Shown here: piece after piece, positions 1 to 34,147 of the stretch
Position numbering within the stretch: the first letter of the stretch is position 1
Layout: each line of letters begins with the position of its first letter
From: Pseudomonadota bacterium
GTDB taxonomy: Bacteria; Desulfobacterota; Desulfobulbia; Desulfobulbales; Desulfocapsaceae
Reading direction: 5' to 3'
Length of the DNA stretch: 64,000 bases
Assembly: GCA_018817385.1 (NCBI GenBank)
Contig: JAHIUA010000063.1
Span: 1-64,000, forward strand
Notes under the pieces: model-generated
Database searches by the model: none
Seen by the model: only the letters and a program-made list of their open reading frames with translations
Told to the model about the DNA's origin: nothing
Program-made: the position numbers and the translations under genes

Positions 1-1764
1 ATCTGTGAGGTGGATAAACTCTGGCGCTGGATATTTGAACTGCCGGAGCTGGAAGTCTTCCGCCTGCGGGATGAATTAATCAAGGTGATAGAGAGACCGG
101 AGCTGCGACGCCCTCCACGTCCTGAACCTGATCCGTCGCCCATCGATCTCAACAGACCCATGTCAACCAGGATGAACATAGCTGCACTCGGACCCCAGCC
201 CGAACCGCCTGACATGCAGGCTCTGAGCTATGCTCCTCCTTCTCTGTCTCCGGAAGTAACGACAAAACTGATGTCCTCATCCTCCAGGGTCATCCGCAAT
301 ACACTTATCACCAACCTGGAGCTGATCCTGCCCTACCTTTGTCTGTGGCCTTACTGGTGGACTTTTCGTTGTGACGAAATCGCGGTGGTTGCAACAGATG
401 GTCTGGGTCGCTTTGAAACAGTCATTAAATATCTCTGCAATGGGGACAAGCCTGATCTCTACTTCTGGGTAGAGTATAAGATCACCAATGTATTCGAGAC
501 AGTTTATCATCCGCCGATCCCCTGTTACACGCACTGGGATTACAAATGCGGCAGTGAAGTAACCCTTGAGATTTCGGACCAGCGGGTACCCAGCTGTGAC
601 GACGAACCCGACCCCGTCGGATGCAAGGTGCAAATCATCTCCATCGGACGAAAGGTGAGCATGTCGGAGATCCATGGAAATGGTTCGACCATTGCCAATG
701 AGGGGCTCACAACCGACGGTGAACCTTTTGGAGGGAAGCTCGAACCCAGGGTCTGGTTCAGCCGGACAACGCTTCACAGTAAAGGAATCCGTTACTACCG
801 CTGGTCATATCGACGGCTTAGTGAAGGTGACGGCAGCCCGCTCACCACAGCCGGTCCCTGGATTCCAATGACCCGCACCGTCATTCGTCACTATGCAAAA
901 GTCACCGGTGATGATATCACCCACGTACCCTATATCCTTGGCCCGCAACCGGTGGGAATGGAATCGAATCTGTTTGAAATCAAACCGGCAGAGGTACCGG
1001 CAGGAGGAGTGGAATGGACGGTTATGGATGAGCGCGAGGATCTGGCCAGCGCCCACTTCGAAACCAGCAAACTGGGGACCGGCGCAGATGCCTGCGCAAA
1101 AGCCTTTGCTGGCGCCGGCAAATATGAACTCAAGCTGGAACTGTTCAAGGATGTCACCGGCGATCTGGTCGACTGGGATGCAGCAGGCATCCATATTGAT
1201 CTCGAGATAACCGATACAGCGGCACCTTTCGGTACCAGCACGGTAACCATGAATCCCGCTCCGGATTACAATCGTATCAAAAACGGTGCCATGCATACCG
1301 TGGCATTTCGGATGGTTCTGCGGGTGGACAACAACTGCTGCCAGGCAGAGCTTGATTCCTTAAGCGGAGTCGGTCTGACTCCGACGCCCTGCGGCTTTTA
1401 CGAGATAACCCCCACTGCGGGTGTGACCCTTGGCTTCACCGCCGGACATCCGAACAATTTCGCAACCTTCTCCTTCAGTGTGAAGCAGGCTGTGACCACC
1501 AATGTTTATCTCGCCAGTGCATCAGGCCGTGTCGGTACCTCGCCGATCCCAACAAACGACACACCGACTCCGAGCCATTCCTATACACTCAGCGGAACAG
1601 GACACTACAGCGAGTCCTTCAGTGCCTCGGAGCTTCTCGGCACCTGTACACGAGCGGCATTTTCCGAAGCCCTTCACGTATGGACAATGACCCAGGACGG
1701 CTATGGCAGGATATGGCCTCTTGACCGCTTCAATCATGCAGGGTTTGCCTTAACTCCCCCATAA
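1..1764 (+). CDS. Large hypothetical protein, C-terminal part (5' truncated by window)
   Basis: The reading frame is open from the first base: codons Ile-Cys-Glu precede the GTG at 10, so the real start lies upstream and at least 587 residues are visible. I do not recognise a family with certainty. Early segments (a stretch with WRWIFELPELEVFRLRDEL, and later GDKPDLYFWVEY) resemble, from memory, proteins with transthyretin/carboxypeptidase-regulatory-like repeats; this is inference. The rest is rich in Pro, Thr, Gly and aromatic residues with scattered Cys (CYTHWDYKC, DNNCC) and looks like beta-sandwich domains. No catalytic motif or membrane segment is visible in this part. A strong hairpin follows the stop. 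It may be a structural or surface protein. Confidence 0.6.
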   Translation: MCEVDKLWRWIFELPELEVFRLRDELIKVIERPELRRPPRPEPDPSPIDLNRPMSTRMNIAALGPQPEPPDMQALSYAPPSLSPEVTTKLMSSSSRVIRNTLITNLELILPYLCLWPYWWTFRCDEIAVVATDGLGRFETVIKYLCNGDKPDLYFWVEYKITNVFETVYHPPIPCYTHWDYKCGSEVTLEISDQRVPSCDDEPDPVGCKVQIISIGRKVSMSEIHGNGSTIANEGLTTDGEPFGGKLEPRVWFSRTTLHSKGIRYYRWSYRRLSEGDGSPLTTAGPWIPMTRTVIRHYAKVTGDDITHVPYILGPQPVGMESNLFEIKPAEVPAGGVEWTVMDEREDLASAHFETSKLGTGADACAKAFAGAGKYELKLELFKDVTGDLVDWDAAGIHIDLEITDTAAPFGTSTVTMNPAPDYNRIKNGAMHTVAFRMVLRVDNNCCQAELDSLSGVGLTPTPCGFYEITPTAGVTLGFTAGHPNNFATFSFSVKQAVTTNVYLASASGRVGTSPIPTNDTPTPSHSYTLSGTGHYSESFSASELLGTCTRAAFSEALHVWTMTQDGYGRIWPLDRFNHAGFALTPP

Positions 1765-4432: not shown

Positions 4433-4461
4433 TTGTCTCTTGGCGAGAGGTAGTATATTAT
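4433..4461 (+). promoter_or_regulatory. Sigma-70-type promoter for the riboswitch transcript
   Basis: TTGTCT (4433-4438), a 17-base spacer, then TATTAT (4456-4461). Transcription would start near 4468, about 30 bases before the c-di-GMP aptamer. The preceding stretch 4040-4430 holds no convincing gene or RNA; the short frames there are not supported. Confidence 0.65.
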
Positions 4462-4496
4462 ACCCAGAAGATTATTTGTTATGGCAATGCTTATAA

Positions 4497-4572
4497 AATA
4501 GAGCCAAACCTGTCGCAAGGCAGGGACGGAAAGCCTCGGAATTCAGCAATGAATTGGCCGGGCTGCCAAAGT
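4497..4572 (+). ncRNA. Cyclic di-GMP-I (GEMM-I) riboswitch aptamer
   Basis: The conserved GEMM-I core is readable: gccaaacc, a stem ctgtc/ggcag closed by a GCAA tetraloop, then ggacggaaagcc, a second stem-loop (cgg aattc...gaatt), and the 3' part ggccgggctgcc that acts as tetraloop receptor and closing strand. Known GEMM-I RNAs bind cyclic di-GMP and often control motility, adhesion and extracellular proteins. The 3' part of the aptamer is also the 5' arm of the following terminator, so binding and termination should compete. The only supported gene downstream is the secreted beta-helix protein at 4842. Confidence 0.88.
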
Positions 4573-4596
4573 AAACAGGGCGGCCCGGCCTTTTTA
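4556..4596 (+). terminator. Intrinsic terminator / expression platform of the GEMM riboswitch
   Basis: ggccgggctgcc (4556-4567) pairs with ggcggcccggcc (4579-4590) over 12 bp with one G.U, followed by TTTTTATT. Its 5' arm lies inside the aptamer, so ligand binding should sequester it and favour read-through (an ON switch by this logic). A 240-base leader then runs to the coding start. Confidence 0.85.
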
Positions 4597-4841
4597 TTGT
4601 TCAGAAGTCTGGCCTTTTGACCGTTACAAACAACTGGTCAGGTCTGGAGACCTACTCTGGAACCCGGTCTTCGCCGGAACAAGAGAAGAAAAAAGGTCCC
4701 AACAGGACTGACGACTCCGACAACATTGCAATGCGTTCCCGACATAGACAGATTGAGTTGCTCATTTTGAGCAGGATATCATCAAGAAACACTTTCTTTA
4801 AAAAATGCTGCCAGCAGCAAACAACAAAACAAGGAGTTATG

Positions 4842-6398
4842 ATGATGCGTCAAAAAACAGGGAGGAAAAAGGAGTTATCATGGAGTCTTGTCTTGGTCTT
4901 TCTTTCCGCACAAGCTGCCTGGTCTGCGGACATCTATGTCTCAGTTCCCGGCGGCGGTGACGGCAGTATCGCAAGTCCCATGGATCTGCAGGCCGCACTT
5001 GATCTTGCCCGTACAAATGGATCAGAAGACACCCTTTATCTGATGGCAGGGGAATATGATGCCTCCACAACCGGTGCTGACACCTACGAATACGGATCGG
5101 TCTCGAACGACGGCATGAAAACGACCCTTTCCGGAAGTTGGAACAGTACCTACACGGAGCAGAAAACCTTTGAGGCCCCTGTCACCAAGCTTGACGGCAA
5201 GGGAACAAGCAGGGTGCTGTCTGTTCACGCCGATGCTGTCAGCTTTGATTTTGCAATGGAATACATACAACTGGAGAACGGTATGATAACGAGCGGCGGC
5301 GGAAATGGCGCCGGTCTGCTGGCCTATACTGAAAACAGTGGCGAGCTCAATCTGACCTTGCATCATATCAGTTTTGAAGACAACAGGACCGTTATCGACA
5401 GCAGTAACAGATCCTATGGTGGCGGTATGTATAGCAACTGTTTTTTCGAGCTGACAGAAGGGCGTTTTAAGGATAACCAGGCCTACGGCGGTGGTGCCAT
5501 GTTCATTGCCGACAAGCCGGGTGGTGACAAATCCATGGCTCCGATTATTGATAATACCCTCTTTGAGGGGAATATATGCGGCAATGCCAGTTACCCGGGA
5601 CTTGTCGGCAGTACTATTTATTATTCCTGTTCACCCCGTATAACCAGATCCCTATTCACGGCCCCAGACTATACTGCCATTGGTTTTTATCCAAACTCAG
5701 CCCTTGACAGCGGCTATGGCGCGGGAACCTTGGCACTGGAAAATTCTGTTTTTTCCGGATTCAAGTCCTATCACTGGGGAGGGGCAATATCTCTCTGGGA
5801 CACAAGTGCCAATATCAGCAACTGTCTTTTTATCAACAACAGGGCAGGATACAGCGGCAGCGGAGCTGGTGGAGCCATCACCGTCTACGATTCCTCAGTG
5901 TTGACAGCTCAAAATACCACCGTCACCAACTGTACCTTTGTCGGCAACCGATCAAGCAGCGCGGCGGTGAGCGGCGGCGCCATCCATAACCGTGTCCAGG
6001 GAATAACAGTCATCAATTCAATTTTCTGGGATAACGGCAGCAATGGACTCTATAAAGAATCCGGCACCGGTACAGTCAGCTACTCGGACATCGAAGGTGG
6101 CGTGGCCAGCTCTTTGATGACAGATGGCGGCAACACTATCAACACGACTCCCTTGTTTGTTGACACCGCAGGGGAAGCAGACAACTGGGATCTTCGTCTG
6201 CAGAACGGCTCTCCCGCTATCGACACTGGTGACAACAACGCCCCCTATCTGACAACCCCTGACCTTGATGGAAACTTCCGTATATGGGACGGTAACCACG
6301 ACAGTACAGCAACAGTGGACATGGGCTGCTACGAGCTCATTGTGAAAAACTTCTCGTGGCCGACAGTTCTCCCGGCAATTATAGGGAAAGAGAAATAA
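4842..6398 (+). CDS. Secreted right-handed beta-helix (polymorphic outer membrane protein-like) protein
   Basis: About 518 residues from the ATG at 4842. The frame is open further upstream, but AAGGAG at 4831-4836 and a signal peptide beginning MMRQKTGRKK with a hydrophobic core ending AQAAWSA fix the start within three consecutive ATGs (4839, 4842, 4845). The body has repeated Gly-Gly-Ala/Gly-Asn motifs typical of right-handed parallel beta-helices (SYGGGMYSNC, YGGGAMFIAD, HWGGAISLWD, GAGGAITVYD, VSGGAIHNRV), each followed by short segments such as NNTLFEGN or NCTFVGN. The C-terminus ends PTVLPAIIGKEK without an evident autotransporter barrel. It lies directly downstream of a c-di-GMP riboswitch and terminator, so it is probably an exported surface or matrix protein made in response to c-di-GMP. 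Confidence 0.85.
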   Translation: MMRQKTGRKKELSWSLVLVFLSAQAAWSADIYVSVPGGGDGSIASPMDLQAALDLARTNGSEDTLYLMAGEYDASTTGADTYEYGSVSNDGMKTTLSGSWNSTYTEQKTFEAPVTKLDGKGTSRVLSVHADAVSFDFAMEYIQLENGMITSGGGNGAGLLAYTENSGELNLTLHHISFEDNRTVIDSSNRSYGGGMYSNCFFELTEGRFKDNQAYGGGAMFIADKPGGDKSMAPIIDNTLFEGNICGNASYPGLVGSTIYYSCSPRITRSLFTAPDYTAIGFYPNSALDSGYGAGTLALENSVFSGFKSYHWGGAISLWDTSANISNCLFINNRAGYSGSGAGGAITVYDSSVLTAQNTTVTNCTFVGNRSSSAAVSGGAIHNRVQGITVINSIFWDNGSNGLYKESGTGTVSYSDIEGGVASSLMTDGGNTINTTPLFVDTAGEADNWDLRLQNGSPAIDTGDNNAPYLTTPDLDGNFRIWDGNHDSTATVDMGCYELIVKNFSWPTVLPAIIGKEK

Positions 6399-6979: not shown

Positions 6980-7121
6980 TCAGCTAACAGACGATAGAGA
7001 ATCACTTTCTCAGACAAAGCTTCAAGAAAGCAAAAGCCCTGTTCCGCTGGGCCTCTGACCATACGGAACAGGTGGTGCGGGCAGATAATGTCCGGCACCA
7101 TAGAGAAATACAATGAAAGTC

Positions 7122-32641: not shown

Positions 32642-34147
32642 TTAGAATGTTCCCAATTCCACCCTGTTCCGTCCATTTTGCTTGGCCCTGTACAGAGCTT
32701 GATCACCGGACTCAATAAGTGCGGCACGGCTTATTGCCAACTGAGTCAGATCGCTGGCAGCAAGCCCTATACTTATGGTAACAGAAATCAACTTTCCGTT
32801 ATACTCAATCTCTTTCTGCTCAACGCCTCTCCGCAGGCGCTGGGCGAGCACCTTTGCCCCGCTGGCCCCGGTTACAGGGAGAACAACAGCAAACTCTTCT
32901 CCCCCGTAGCGGGCAACGAAGTCACAATTACGTACCAGAGAGACGAGGACTTGACTCACCTCTTTCAAGACCTTGTCGCCTGCGGGATGTCCGTAGTTAT
33001 CGTTGACACTCTTAAAAAAATCGATATCCACCATCAGCATGGCAATGGGATGTCCATAGCGACCTCCCCGTTCCAGTTCTGCTTGCAGTACTTCCTGAAA
33101 ATGTCGATGATTATAGAGACCGGTCAGACCATCACGCACGGCAAGTTCACGGAGACTGTCATTTGCCTGTTTCAGCTCCATGGCAAGTTTTTCAGCACTC
33201 TGCTTTGCCTGCTTCAGTTCAAGAACAATCTGTTCATAGGAGAGATTCAGGCGCCCCAGTTCCTCATTTGCCTCCTGCATGATCTGAGAAAAGGGCTTGA
33301 TTTCTCCCGGATCAATGGCGAACAGATCCAGGACCTCACGAGCCCTCTCACCAACGGCGTCAATCAGACGATCTATTTGTTCACCGGAAAGATGCCAGTT
33401 CCTGGCCAGACCGAGGTGCACCTCTCCGGATTTACTGTTACTGCGGACGCCATGATACATGGCTGAAATCTTATCGGCAAAATCAAGTACCAGGGCCGCC
33501 TGTCTATACTCTTCATCCGGAGCCTCAGAGTGATGGAAACGGATCGGTTGACAGATCGAACTGGGCAGGTTCCACGATTTGAGAAAATGACAACCGACCT
33601 CTGCGTGATCATAGCCAAACTGTTCCTTTTCCGTTGTACAGAGACTTTTGCCACTGACGCGCTTATCATTCAAGACCGTGGTATAGGCACTGGGATCGGA
33701 GAGAAAGAGGATCATCACCCCGATATCCTGTAATAAGGCTGAGGCGAAGATATCCTGATCTTTAAAGGCGATATTTTTTCCCAGCACCTCAGCAGCAACT
33801 GCGGCAGTGATCGCCCGTCGCCAAAAAAGATTGAGGTCAAAACTCCCCTGGGGGGCATCCTGAAAATCCTGCACAATAACAAAAGAAAGGGCTATATTTT
33901 TCAGGGCATCAGTACCGATCATGGCCGTGGCCTGGGCCAGGGAGTTGACGGGTTTAACAAGTCCGTAGAGGGAGGAATTAGCAATTTTCAGGATGCGGAC
34001 ACTCAGGGCGGGATCTGCGGCGATGATCCGAGCCAGATCATCAAACGAATTATCCTCCTGTTGAACCGCCTCAAGAATTTTCAAGGCAATGGCAGGTGGC
34101 GAAGGTAACCTGCATTTTTCATCAAAGAAGTCCTCAATACTGTCCAT
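32642..34147 (-). CDS. HDOD-GGDEF diguanylate cyclase
   Basis: 501 residues from ATG 34147; GTG 34168 is in frame but lacks a ribosome site, whereas AAGGG lies nine bases before the ATG. The N-terminal HDOD domain (LPSPPAIALKILEAV, ADPALSVRILKIANSSLYGL) carries QD instead of the HD pair. A helical linker leads to a GGDEF domain with DGLTGLYNHR, DIDFFKSVND and the active-site sequence YGGEEF at about residues 414-419. An RxxD inhibitory site (RNCD, about 406-409) precedes it by five residues, so activity should be product-inhibited. It should make c-di-GMP, the ligand of the riboswitch at 4.5 kb. Confidence 0.93.
   Translation of the reverse strand: MDSIEDFFDEKCRLPSPPAIALKILEAVQQEDNSFDDLARIIAADPALSVRILKIANSSLYGLVKPVNSLAQATAMIGTDALKNIALSFVIVQDFQDAPQGSFDLNLFWRRAITAAVAAEVLGKNIAFKDQDIFASALLQDIGVMILFLSDPSAYTTVLNDKRVSGKSLCTTEKEQFGYDHAEVGCHFLKSWNLPSSICQPIRFHHSEAPDEEYRQAALVLDFADKISAMYHGVRSNSKSGEVHLGLARNWHLSGEQIDRLIDAVGERAREVLDLFAIDPGEIKPFSQIMQEANEELGRLNLSYEQIVLELKQAKQSAEKLAMELKQANDSLRELAVRDGLTGLYNHRHFQEVLQAELERGGRYGHPIAMLMVDIDFFKSVNDNYGHPAGDKVLKEVSQVLVSLVRNCDFVARYGGEEFAVVLPVTGASGAKVLAQRLRRGVEQKEIEYNGKLISVTISIGLAASDLTQLAISRAALIESGDQALYRAKQNGRNRVELGTF

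What the first reader, a model, noticed from the sequence alone, without database searches (positions are those of the whole stretch)
4433..6398. c-di-GMP riboswitch with terminator ahead of a secreted beta-helix protein
Promoter, GEMM-I aptamer, mutually exclusive terminator and a signal-peptide beta-helix gene line up over 2 kb. It gives a direct link from c-di-GMP to a probable surface or matrix protein that is not a known riboswitch target to me.
Basis: partly seen in the sequence, partly recalled or inferred. Interest (0 to 1): 0.75.

Follow-up and report, generated by a model that had tools for sequence, protein, structure and literature searches.

The report
Riboswitch regulon of tagged secreted proteins
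A bacterial RNA switch that should respond to the signal molecule c-di-GMP sits in front of a secreted protein, and it is one of 21 such switches in a genome whose targets are mostly exported proteins, several ending in a similar short, apparently unnamed peptide tag.

Summary
Window 4494-4571 scores 64.2 bits against Rfam RF01051 (cut-off 35) and 59.3 against RF03167 (cut-off 59). A strong terminator (4556-4590 plus U-tract) reuses the aptamer's 3' strand, which predicts a c-di-GMP ON switch of the pilM type. Pocket bases G20, A47 and C92 are those expected for c-di-GMP, not cGAMP. A secreted choice-of-anchor Q / possible beta-helix protein follows (ATG 4839, stop 6398).

Alone this is an ordinary class-I riboswitch with a new target. 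It is one of 21 copies in a Desulfocapsa-like genome; 19 of 20 first genes held pass a crude export-signal rule. Six of the 20, the window's included, carry versions of F-[P/S]-W-[P/N]-[M/L]-F-L-P-A-I, usually just before the stop. I counted 79 distinct such ends. No NCBIfam or Pfam model reaches its cut-off on the tag in the proteins scanned, no held paper contains its letters, and it tracks neither exosortase nor sortase.

My reading: c-di-GMP switches on secreted proteins, several delivered through a terminal tag. Shown: sequence, architecture, enrichment. Inferred: ligand, switching direction, tag function. Against: in four related genomes only 1 of 30 strict tags lies behind a riboswitch.

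The parts
4433..4461 (+). sigma-70-like promoter, TTGTCT-17-TATTAT
   Evidence: 9 of 12 matches; such sites also arise by chance
4493..4571 (+). GEMM-I (c-di-GMP-I) aptamer
   Evidence: RF01051 64.2 bits; RF03167 59.3 bits
4503..4503 (+). G20 equivalent (G expected for c-di-GMP, A in cGAMP riboswitches)
   Evidence: register; numbering recalled from the Vc2 structure
4504..4529 (+). pocket pair C21-G46 (4504 with 4529), G-C in Vc2 (recalled) and in the RF03167 consensus; followed by A47 equivalent at 4530
4566..4566 (+). C92 equivalent, the ligand-pairing C, inside the terminator's 5' arm
   Evidence: numbering recalled
4556..4595 (+). intrinsic terminator: 5' arm 4556-4567 shared with the aptamer, 3' arm 4579-4590, U-tract 4591-4595
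4831..4836 (+). Shine-Dalgarno-like AAGGAG
   Evidence: sequence
4839..6398 (+). exported protein gene, 519 aa from the first of three ATGs
4839..4928 (+). signal peptide (MMMRQKTGRKKELSWSLVLVFLSAQAAWSA)
   Evidence: read by eye; crude hydrophobicity rule; no trained predictor run
5553..5999 (+). possible right-handed beta-helix region
   Evidence: PF13229 23.9 bits, below its cut-off of 25.9
6186..6338 (+). choice-of-anchor Q domain, residues 450-500
   Evidence: NF041518 29.3 bits, cut-off 25
6351..6395 (+). C-terminal tag FSWPTVLPAIIGKEK, residues 505-519 (T and V where most tags have M/L and F)

Best explanation
Transcription starts near 4468 and RNA polymerase makes the aptamer first. Without ligand, the aptamer's 3' strand is taken over by the terminator and transcription stops at about 4591-4595. 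With c-di-GMP bound, the ligand holds C4566 and P3 together, the terminator cannot form, and the 519-aa exported protein is made. The same kind of switch is present 21 times in this Desulfocapsa-like genome and places a set of mostly exported proteins under c-di-GMP control. Several of these, this one included, end in a version of F-x-W-P/N-M/L-F-L-P-A-I plus 2-9 residues, which I read as a terminal sorting or docking tag that takes unrelated exported domains to a common place, most likely the cell surface or matrix. My confidence by step: class-I aptamer 0.95; c-di-GMP as ligand 0.85; ON switch 0.85; exported product 0.9; tag is a real conserved motif 0.95; tag is a delivery or anchoring signal 0.6.
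For: RNA. The 21 aptamers covary over the structure I gave, P1 left out (95.0% of cells paired against 83.2% in shuffles; covariation score 0.431 against 0.199, 0 of 500 shuffles). All 21 keep G20, C21-G46 and A47; 20 of 21 keep C92. In 19 of 21 the terminator overlaps the aptamer 3' end by 13-24 nt, as in the Geobacter pilM ON switch (passages of PMC9262584). The genome has 35 GGDEF matches in 34 frames to supply ligand. Targets: of 66 first-gene rows in five genomes, 53 have a signal-like N-terminus, 12 carry the tag (loose pattern; 11 distinct genes) and 11 carry a second motif, against 98, 1 and 4 of 195 other ORFs in the same stretches. Tag: 22 relaxed hits in the genome against 3 for the reversed pattern, 13 of the 22 convincing; 96 strict hits in 144 genomes against 2 reversed. 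F two before the W in 76 of 79 although no search asked for it. C-terminal in 55 of 64 hits in records titled as Desulfobacterota or 'Deltaproteobacteria' against 0 of 19 elsewhere. Tagged proteins carry FG-GAP, RCC1, PD40 or GEVED domains in 6 of 10 scanned, and the tag follows choice_anch_Q by a few residues in the window and L091. One tagged family, 71-76% identical, keeps both riboswitch and tag in G000, G018 and G023, two genera.
Against: Nothing here is biochemical. P1 is nearly absent in this copy. The window's own tag deviates from the consensus at two core positions, so only the relaxed pattern finds it. The window protein has only weak relatives in three of the other 85 genomes searched, so gene plus riboswitch is not conserved as a unit. 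Tag and riboswitch are largely independent outside this genome: with the strict pattern 5 of 11 tags in G000 lie within 5 kb downstream of a GEMM-I, but 1 of 7 in G018 and 0 of 8, 0 of 3 and 0 of 12 in G001, G002 and G023 (hand count, put through; 19 of the 21 GEMM-I of G018 were listed; two of the five in G000 are neighbours behind one riboswitch). A model search of the 80 loci found one weak hit (12.8 bits), and of 43 other pattern-hit loci one strong hit that lies after, not before, the tagged gene (L069), although many of those stretches end before the gene start. No processing or receptor gene was found for the tag. Nine of the 22 relaxed hits in this genome look like chance, and 9 of the 64 hits are not near a stop of a long frame. 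A promoter-like site at 4753-4782, after the terminator, could bypass the switch.
Confidence: 0.65

Rival explanations
1. The switch works as described but the tag is not a signal: it is a structural capping strand or an inherited leftover of duplicated modules.
For: Some tagged genes are related copies: one BLAST cluster of 21 ORFs (17 tagged) spans 19 of the 77 tagged loci, and L023 and L061 are 57% identical. Hydrophobic strands can cap a beta-helix.
Against: The motif occurs on proteins with unrelated domains (FG-GAP, RCC1, PD40, GEVED).
Confidence: 0.25
2. The RNA senses another cyclic dinucleotide, as the RF03167 'c-di-GMP-I-GGC' label or the cGAMP riboswitches of Geobacter might suggest.
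For: RF03167 is the clan winner for the window and for 9 of 19 other copies scanned, with up to 71.1 bits. One copy (L026) has U at the C92 position. All 21 copies have C21-G46, where the RF03167 consensus has G-C.
Against: The window passes RF03167 by only 0.3 bits and its consensus has G where this RNA has A47. cGAMP riboswitches carry A at position 20 (recalled), and GEMM-I with G20A binds cGAMP (passages of PMC6274999); here it is G in all 21.
Confidence: 0.12
3. The riboswitch controls little: the gene is mainly driven by the promoter-like site at 4753-4782, or the short terminated RNA is the product.
For: 248 nt separate the terminator from the ATG, with a promoter-like match in between.
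Against: Such matches occur by chance (1.8 +/- 1.3 expected). First ORFs of this genome begin from within 50 nt to several hundred nt after the aptamer, yet exported products recur (ORF starts are the first possible start codons). The 4596-4845 leader shows no special structure (z -1.0).
Confidence: 0.1

Closest known systems
c-di-GMP-I (GEMM-I) riboswitch, Rfam RF01051
   Same: Aptamer fold, pocket bases G20/A47/C92, score well over the cut-off.
   Different: Poor P1; inner pair C21-G46 in all 21 copies. Many copies per genome are not new: G. sulfurreducens has 17 GEMM-I riboswitches (passages of PMC8835794 and PMC6456294).
pilM cGAMP riboswitch of Geobacter metallireducens (PMC9262584, passages)
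   Same: ON switch in which the terminator takes the aptamer's own strand, including the ligand-pairing C.
   Different: That RNA senses cGAMP; this one has G20 and should sense c-di-GMP.
C. difficile c-di-GMP-II riboswitches before the adhesins CD2831 and CD3246 (PMC11477304, passages)
   Same: c-di-GMP raises surface proteins through a riboswitch; a title in its reference list speaks of c-di-GMP-regulated sortase substrates.
   Different: Other aptamer class, Gram-positive host, sortase known. Here class I, Gram-negative host, unknown tag partner.
C-terminal sorting signals: MYXO-CTERM/myxosortase (abstract of PMC11980579), PEP-CTERM/exosortase and GlyGly-CTERM/rhombosortase (listing; details recalled)
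   Same: Short conserved C-terminal motif on many unrelated exported proteins of one lineage.
   Different: No transmembrane helix or basic tail after the motif, which is followed by only 2-9 residues, and it can sit just after the signal peptide instead. No NCBIfam or Pfam model reaches its cut-off on it in the proteins scanned.
choice-of-anchor Q domain (NF041518)
   Same: Domain present just before the tag in the window protein and L091.
   Different: The model covers the domain, not this tag.

Membership tests
c-di-GMP-I riboswitch (RF01051) | Covariance score at or above the gathering score | tested here: met
   64.2 against 35 bits
c-di-GMP-I riboswitch (RF01051) | G20, A47, C92 in the pocket | tested here: met
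   4503 G, 4530 A, 4566 C; numbering recalled
c-di-GMP-I riboswitch (RF01051) | P1 stem closing the aptamer | tested here: inconclusive
   1 of 3 canonical pairs in this copy; 3 of 3 in 5 of the other 20, fewer in the rest
c-di-GMP-I riboswitch (RF01051) | c-di-GMP binding | not testable with these tools
   needs in-line probing or ITC
c-di-GMP-I-GGC (RF03167) | Gathering score | tested here: met
   59.3 against 59 bits
c-di-GMP-I-GGC (RF03167) | G at model position 37, the A47 site, as in the consensus (that this defines the class is my inference) | tested here: not met
   A in the window and in all 21 copies
cGAMP riboswitch (GEMM-Ib) | A at position 20 (recalled) | tested here: not met
   G in all 21 copies
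Transcriptional ON switch of the pilM type | Terminator arm overlaps the aptamer, so the two folds exclude each other | tested here: met
   4556-4567 shared; direction of switching not measured
choice-of-anchor Q (NF041518) | Curated cut-off | tested here: met
   29.3 against 25 bits
Right-handed beta-helix (PF13229) | Gathering score | tested here: not met
   23.9 against 25.9 bits; fold model uninformative
PEP-CTERM / exosortase | Tag followed by a membrane helix and basic tail (recalled); exosortase present where the tag is | tested here: not met
   2-9 residues follow the motif. This genome has one exosortase, but tag-rich G001, G019 (72% complete), G023 and G039 show none, while G008-G010, without strict tags, have one each
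LPXTG / sortase | LPXTG-type motif with membrane tail (recalled); sortase present where the tag is | tested here: not met
   Many tags read LPAITG, close to LPXTG by eye, but have no tail. This genome has one sortase; tag-rich G018, G023, G039 show none
MYXO-CTERM, GlyGly-CTERM | Motif with invariant Cys, or Gly-Gly, followed by a membrane helix | tested here: not met
   No helix after any of 79 tags and no invariant Cys; several tags do have Gly-Gly after the core. The processing enzymes were not searched for

The most novel reading that the evidence does not exclude
Desulfobulbales use a transmembrane-free terminal tag, FPWPMFLPAI, working at either end of the mature protein, as the address for an undescribed surface-delivery or docking system. 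In this Desulfocapsa-like lineage c-di-GMP loads that system by switching on tagged cargo through many copies of one riboswitch type.
Probability: 0.4. Interest if true: 0.82.

Novelty: new variant of a known kind. Interest (0 to 1): 0.6.

Why it matters
Class-I c-di-GMP riboswitches are well known, so the window alone adds one target. The regulon gives a testable list of about 20 genes that c-di-GMP should switch on in an environmental bacterium of the sulfur cycle. The shared tag points to a protein-delivery route with no name in the libraries searched. A terminal tag without a membrane anchor, able to sit at either end of the mature protein, would not fit the C-terminal sorting signals that I know from Gram-negative bacteria.

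Tried and rejected
RF03167 (GGC variant) as the class: rejected on the A47 position. cGAMP sensing: rejected on G20. Exosortase and sortase as tag partners: presence does not follow the tag. Neighbour clustering around 77 tagged loci showed no recurrent gene that I could recognise as a processing gene; the larger untagged clusters were, by eye, a sensor-like protein (9 loci) and an unidentified protein (6 loci). The window protein's own conservation is too low to support a conserved gene-riboswitch pair. Single-sequence structure prediction failed, so no fold search was run; no PDB match at E 0.1. The 250-nt leader after the terminator is not specially structured. Model search of tagged loci outside this genome was nearly empty, but many loci end before the gene start, so whole-genome coordinates were used instead. 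Literature: no held paper contains the letters WPMFLPA, FPWPMF, WNLFLPA or FLPAITG, nor KVVVIPL, DKVVVVPL or NKVVVIPL; three held papers mention the GGC/UAU variant names, and the one opened (PMC11124144, passages) uses the name as a drawing template. The paper that I believe defined the variants (recalled) is not held.

Counts and rows dropped: only tags 8-17 residues before a stop with at least 80 codons upstream were counted, so the range 10-17 is partly imposed (68 after removing repeats, plus 11 of this genome typed). Of the 28 loci outside this genome that one search examined, 22 had the motif within 17 residues of a stop. In one search, 71 aptamers were taken from five genomes (21 of 21, 19 of 21, 12 of 12, 8 of 8, 11 of 11); five had no first ORF of 100 aa within 1.6 kb, leaving 66 rows. 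Two genes with tandem riboswitches (L224, L252) count twice. Background ORFs include second genes of the same transcripts and some counted twice where stretches overlap. Its regular expressions are looser than the search patterns. One dropped row (L229) has a short tagged ORF. The taxon split was made by me from record titles, and its riboswitch-distance counts were typed in; only 80 of 108 stretches were listed. Outputs were cut.

Full report
CHECK. Rfam names RF03167 at 4494-4571 (59.3 bits, cut-off 59); RF01051 scores 64.2 bits against 35 and is the third best of 21 over-cut-off copies in the genome. The region folds far better than shuffled sequence (z -4.8). The terminator is 4556-4590 with U-tract 4591-4595, and its 5' arm is the aptamer's own 3' strand.

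LIGAND. The RF03167 consensus printed has G where the window has A47 (4530). Position 20 (4503) is G, as in c-di-GMP riboswitches; A is the cGAMP state (recalled), and GEMM-I with G20A binds cGAMP (passages of PMC6274999). C92 is 4566. Numbering is recalled from the Vc2 structure. All 21 genomic copies share G20, C21-G46 and A47 and 20 share C92; L026 has U. RF03167 is nevertheless the clan winner for the window and 9 of 19 other copies scanned. c-di-GMP is the best guess. P1 is poor in this copy (1 of 3 pairs) and incomplete in most others, a real caveat for affinity.

SWITCHING. In the Geobacter pilM riboswitch the terminator takes the aptamer strand including the ligand-pairing C, and ligand prevents it (passages of PMC9262584). 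The window has the same geometry: C4566 lies in the terminator arm, and the terminator fold is about 12 kcal/mol better than the aptamer-constrained fold without ligand. Of the 21 copies, 19 show this overlap by script. L015 has a visible terminator that the script missed (sequence). L036 has a separate terminator starting 5 nt after the aptamer. I infer ON switches for all but L036.

REGULON. Downstream genes are mostly exported (by eye). By a crude hydrophobicity rule, 19 of 20 first genes in this genome and 53 of 66 rows in five genomes have a signal-like N-terminus, against 98 of 195 other ORFs in the same stretches (the rule also passes membrane proteins). Targets include an FG-GAP protein (L022), and by eye repeat and beta-helix-like proteins, a small three-CxxCH cytochrome (L028) and a membrane protein resembling an alginate O-acetyltransferase (L039), which fits adhesion or matrix building. 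Large GEMM-I sets are known: G. sulfurreducens has 17 (passages of PMC8835794 and PMC6456294).

TAG. The window protein ends FSWPTVLPAIIGKEK. A relaxed DNA pattern gave 22 hits in the genome against 3 for its reversed control; 13 of the 22 are convincing: in 11 the W lies 12-15 residues before a stop, in one 36, and one (C33) lies right after a signal peptide. One of the 11 (the second C64 hit) lies in a very short frame. The other 9 look like chance. Seven of the 13, behind six riboswitches, are downstream of a GEMM-I on the same strand. A strict pattern, which misses the window's own version, gave 96 hits in 26 of 144 genomes against 2 reversed. A scan of genome contigs for W-P-M-F-[L/V/I/M/F]-P-A-[I/M] gave 108 stretches, 80 listed; 55 of 64 hits in records titled as Desulfobacterota or 'Deltaproteobacteria' are C-terminal, against 0 of 19 in other records. 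Phenylalanine two before the W is present in 76 of 79 tags though never asked for.

WHAT THE TAG IS. Of ten tagged proteins scanned, six have Pfam domains, namely FG-GAP, RCC1, PD40 or GEVED, some with InlB-type or thrombospondin repeats near the end. A choice-of-anchor Q domain over its cut-off precedes the tag by a few residues in the window and L091, and by about 90 residues in L146; L071 is below the cut-off and L140 shows it only by alignment. Tagged proteins are signal-like without later membrane helices in 41 of 64 cases, against 60 of 222 neighbours. Nothing like a membrane helix follows the tag. Of ten 40-residue ends, none reached a cut-off in NCBIfam or Pfam; the weak hits were repeats beside the tag and, over the tag itself, DUF4820 at E 0.22-0.49 in three (10-11 bits, cut-off 27). 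Exosortase and sortase presence do not track it. It can also lie just after an apparent signal peptide (C33/L031, L065, L132, and a variant in L220). I therefore favour a docking or delivery tag read by an unknown partner over a cleavage signal.

LINK BETWEEN TAG AND SWITCH. With strict patterns, 6 of 41 tags in five genomes have a GEMM-I within 5 kb upstream, expected 0.33, but 5 of the 6 are in this genome and two of those lie behind one riboswitch. By looser motif, 12 of 66 first-gene rows (11 distinct genes) against 1 of 195 others. One protein family, 71-76% identical, has tag and GEMM-I in G000, G018 (a variant tag) and, with two riboswitches, G023. The tag is also common without a riboswitch: none of the strict tags of G001, G019 or G023 lies behind a listed GEMM-I. 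So the riboswitch has recruited some tagged cargo; it does not define the tag.

SECOND MOTIF. A pattern for [D/N/H]-K-V-V-V-I-P-L gave 28 hits in eight genomes against 1 reversed, all 28 in five genomes; 11 of them lie within 1.5 kb after a GEMM-I, expected 0.07, with 5 of 6 in G018. In the riboswitch targets shown it follows the signal peptide directly; the other hits were not examined.

ORGANISM. Same-genus handles match records titled Desulfocapsa sp. (for example G018 C22 and JAQYVF010000080.1 share length and hit position), but so does G023 of another genus (C185 and VMSP01000136.1), so I say only Desulfocapsa-like; NCBI places Desulfocapsa in Desulfobulbales. The window's own record is not named.

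VERDICT. The riboswitch is a new member of a known class with a reasonable new target. The regulon and the unnamed tag are what lift the interest.

Noticed in passing
L021, L026, L031, L211, L212, L214, L215, L219, L225, L233, L242 (targets of GEMM-I in G000, G018, G002, G001): A second motif, like D/N-K-V-V-V-I-P-L, near the N-terminus of many riboswitch targets, right after the signal peptide where I looked; 11 of 28 pattern hits lie within 1.5 kb after a GEMM-I. No held paper contains the letters searched.
   Followed up: partly
L245, L248, L249, L250, L251, L253 (genome G023): Six dispersed copies, about 85-95% identical over some 270 bp or more, holding an upstream palindrome of roughly 50 bp, the aptamer and the terminator, in front of genes that look unrelated: perhaps a spreading riboswitch cassette.
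   Followed up: partly
L025, L027, L028, L030, L032, L034, L038 (genome G000): Seven riboswitch copies sharing about 130-260 bp of promoter-aptamer-terminator sequence at about 78-87% identity in the rows shown; three have a perfect TGAATnnnnATTCA repeat upstream.
   Followed up: partly
L026, reverse strand 7012-7086: The only one of 21 aptamers with U at the C92 position, which might change ligand preference.
   Followed up: no
L224 (G018) 5033-5235 and L252 (G023) 5305-5759: Tandem GEMM-I copies, separated by 53 nt and about 300 nt, in front of one gene.
   Followed up: no
L036, reverse strand 6999-7075: Aptamer followed by a separate terminator that does not overlap it, so its logic may differ from the other copies.
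   Followed up: no
L226 (G002): GEMM-I ahead of a gene run whose proteins look like PilT-type twitching ATPases (by eye).
   Followed up: no
window 32663-33142, reverse strand: A GGDEF domain in a 515-aa frame, a possible local source of c-di-GMP.
   Followed up: no
window 10-1764, forward strand: A 584-aa frame near the window start with no NCBIfam or Pfam match at E 0.01.
   Followed up: no
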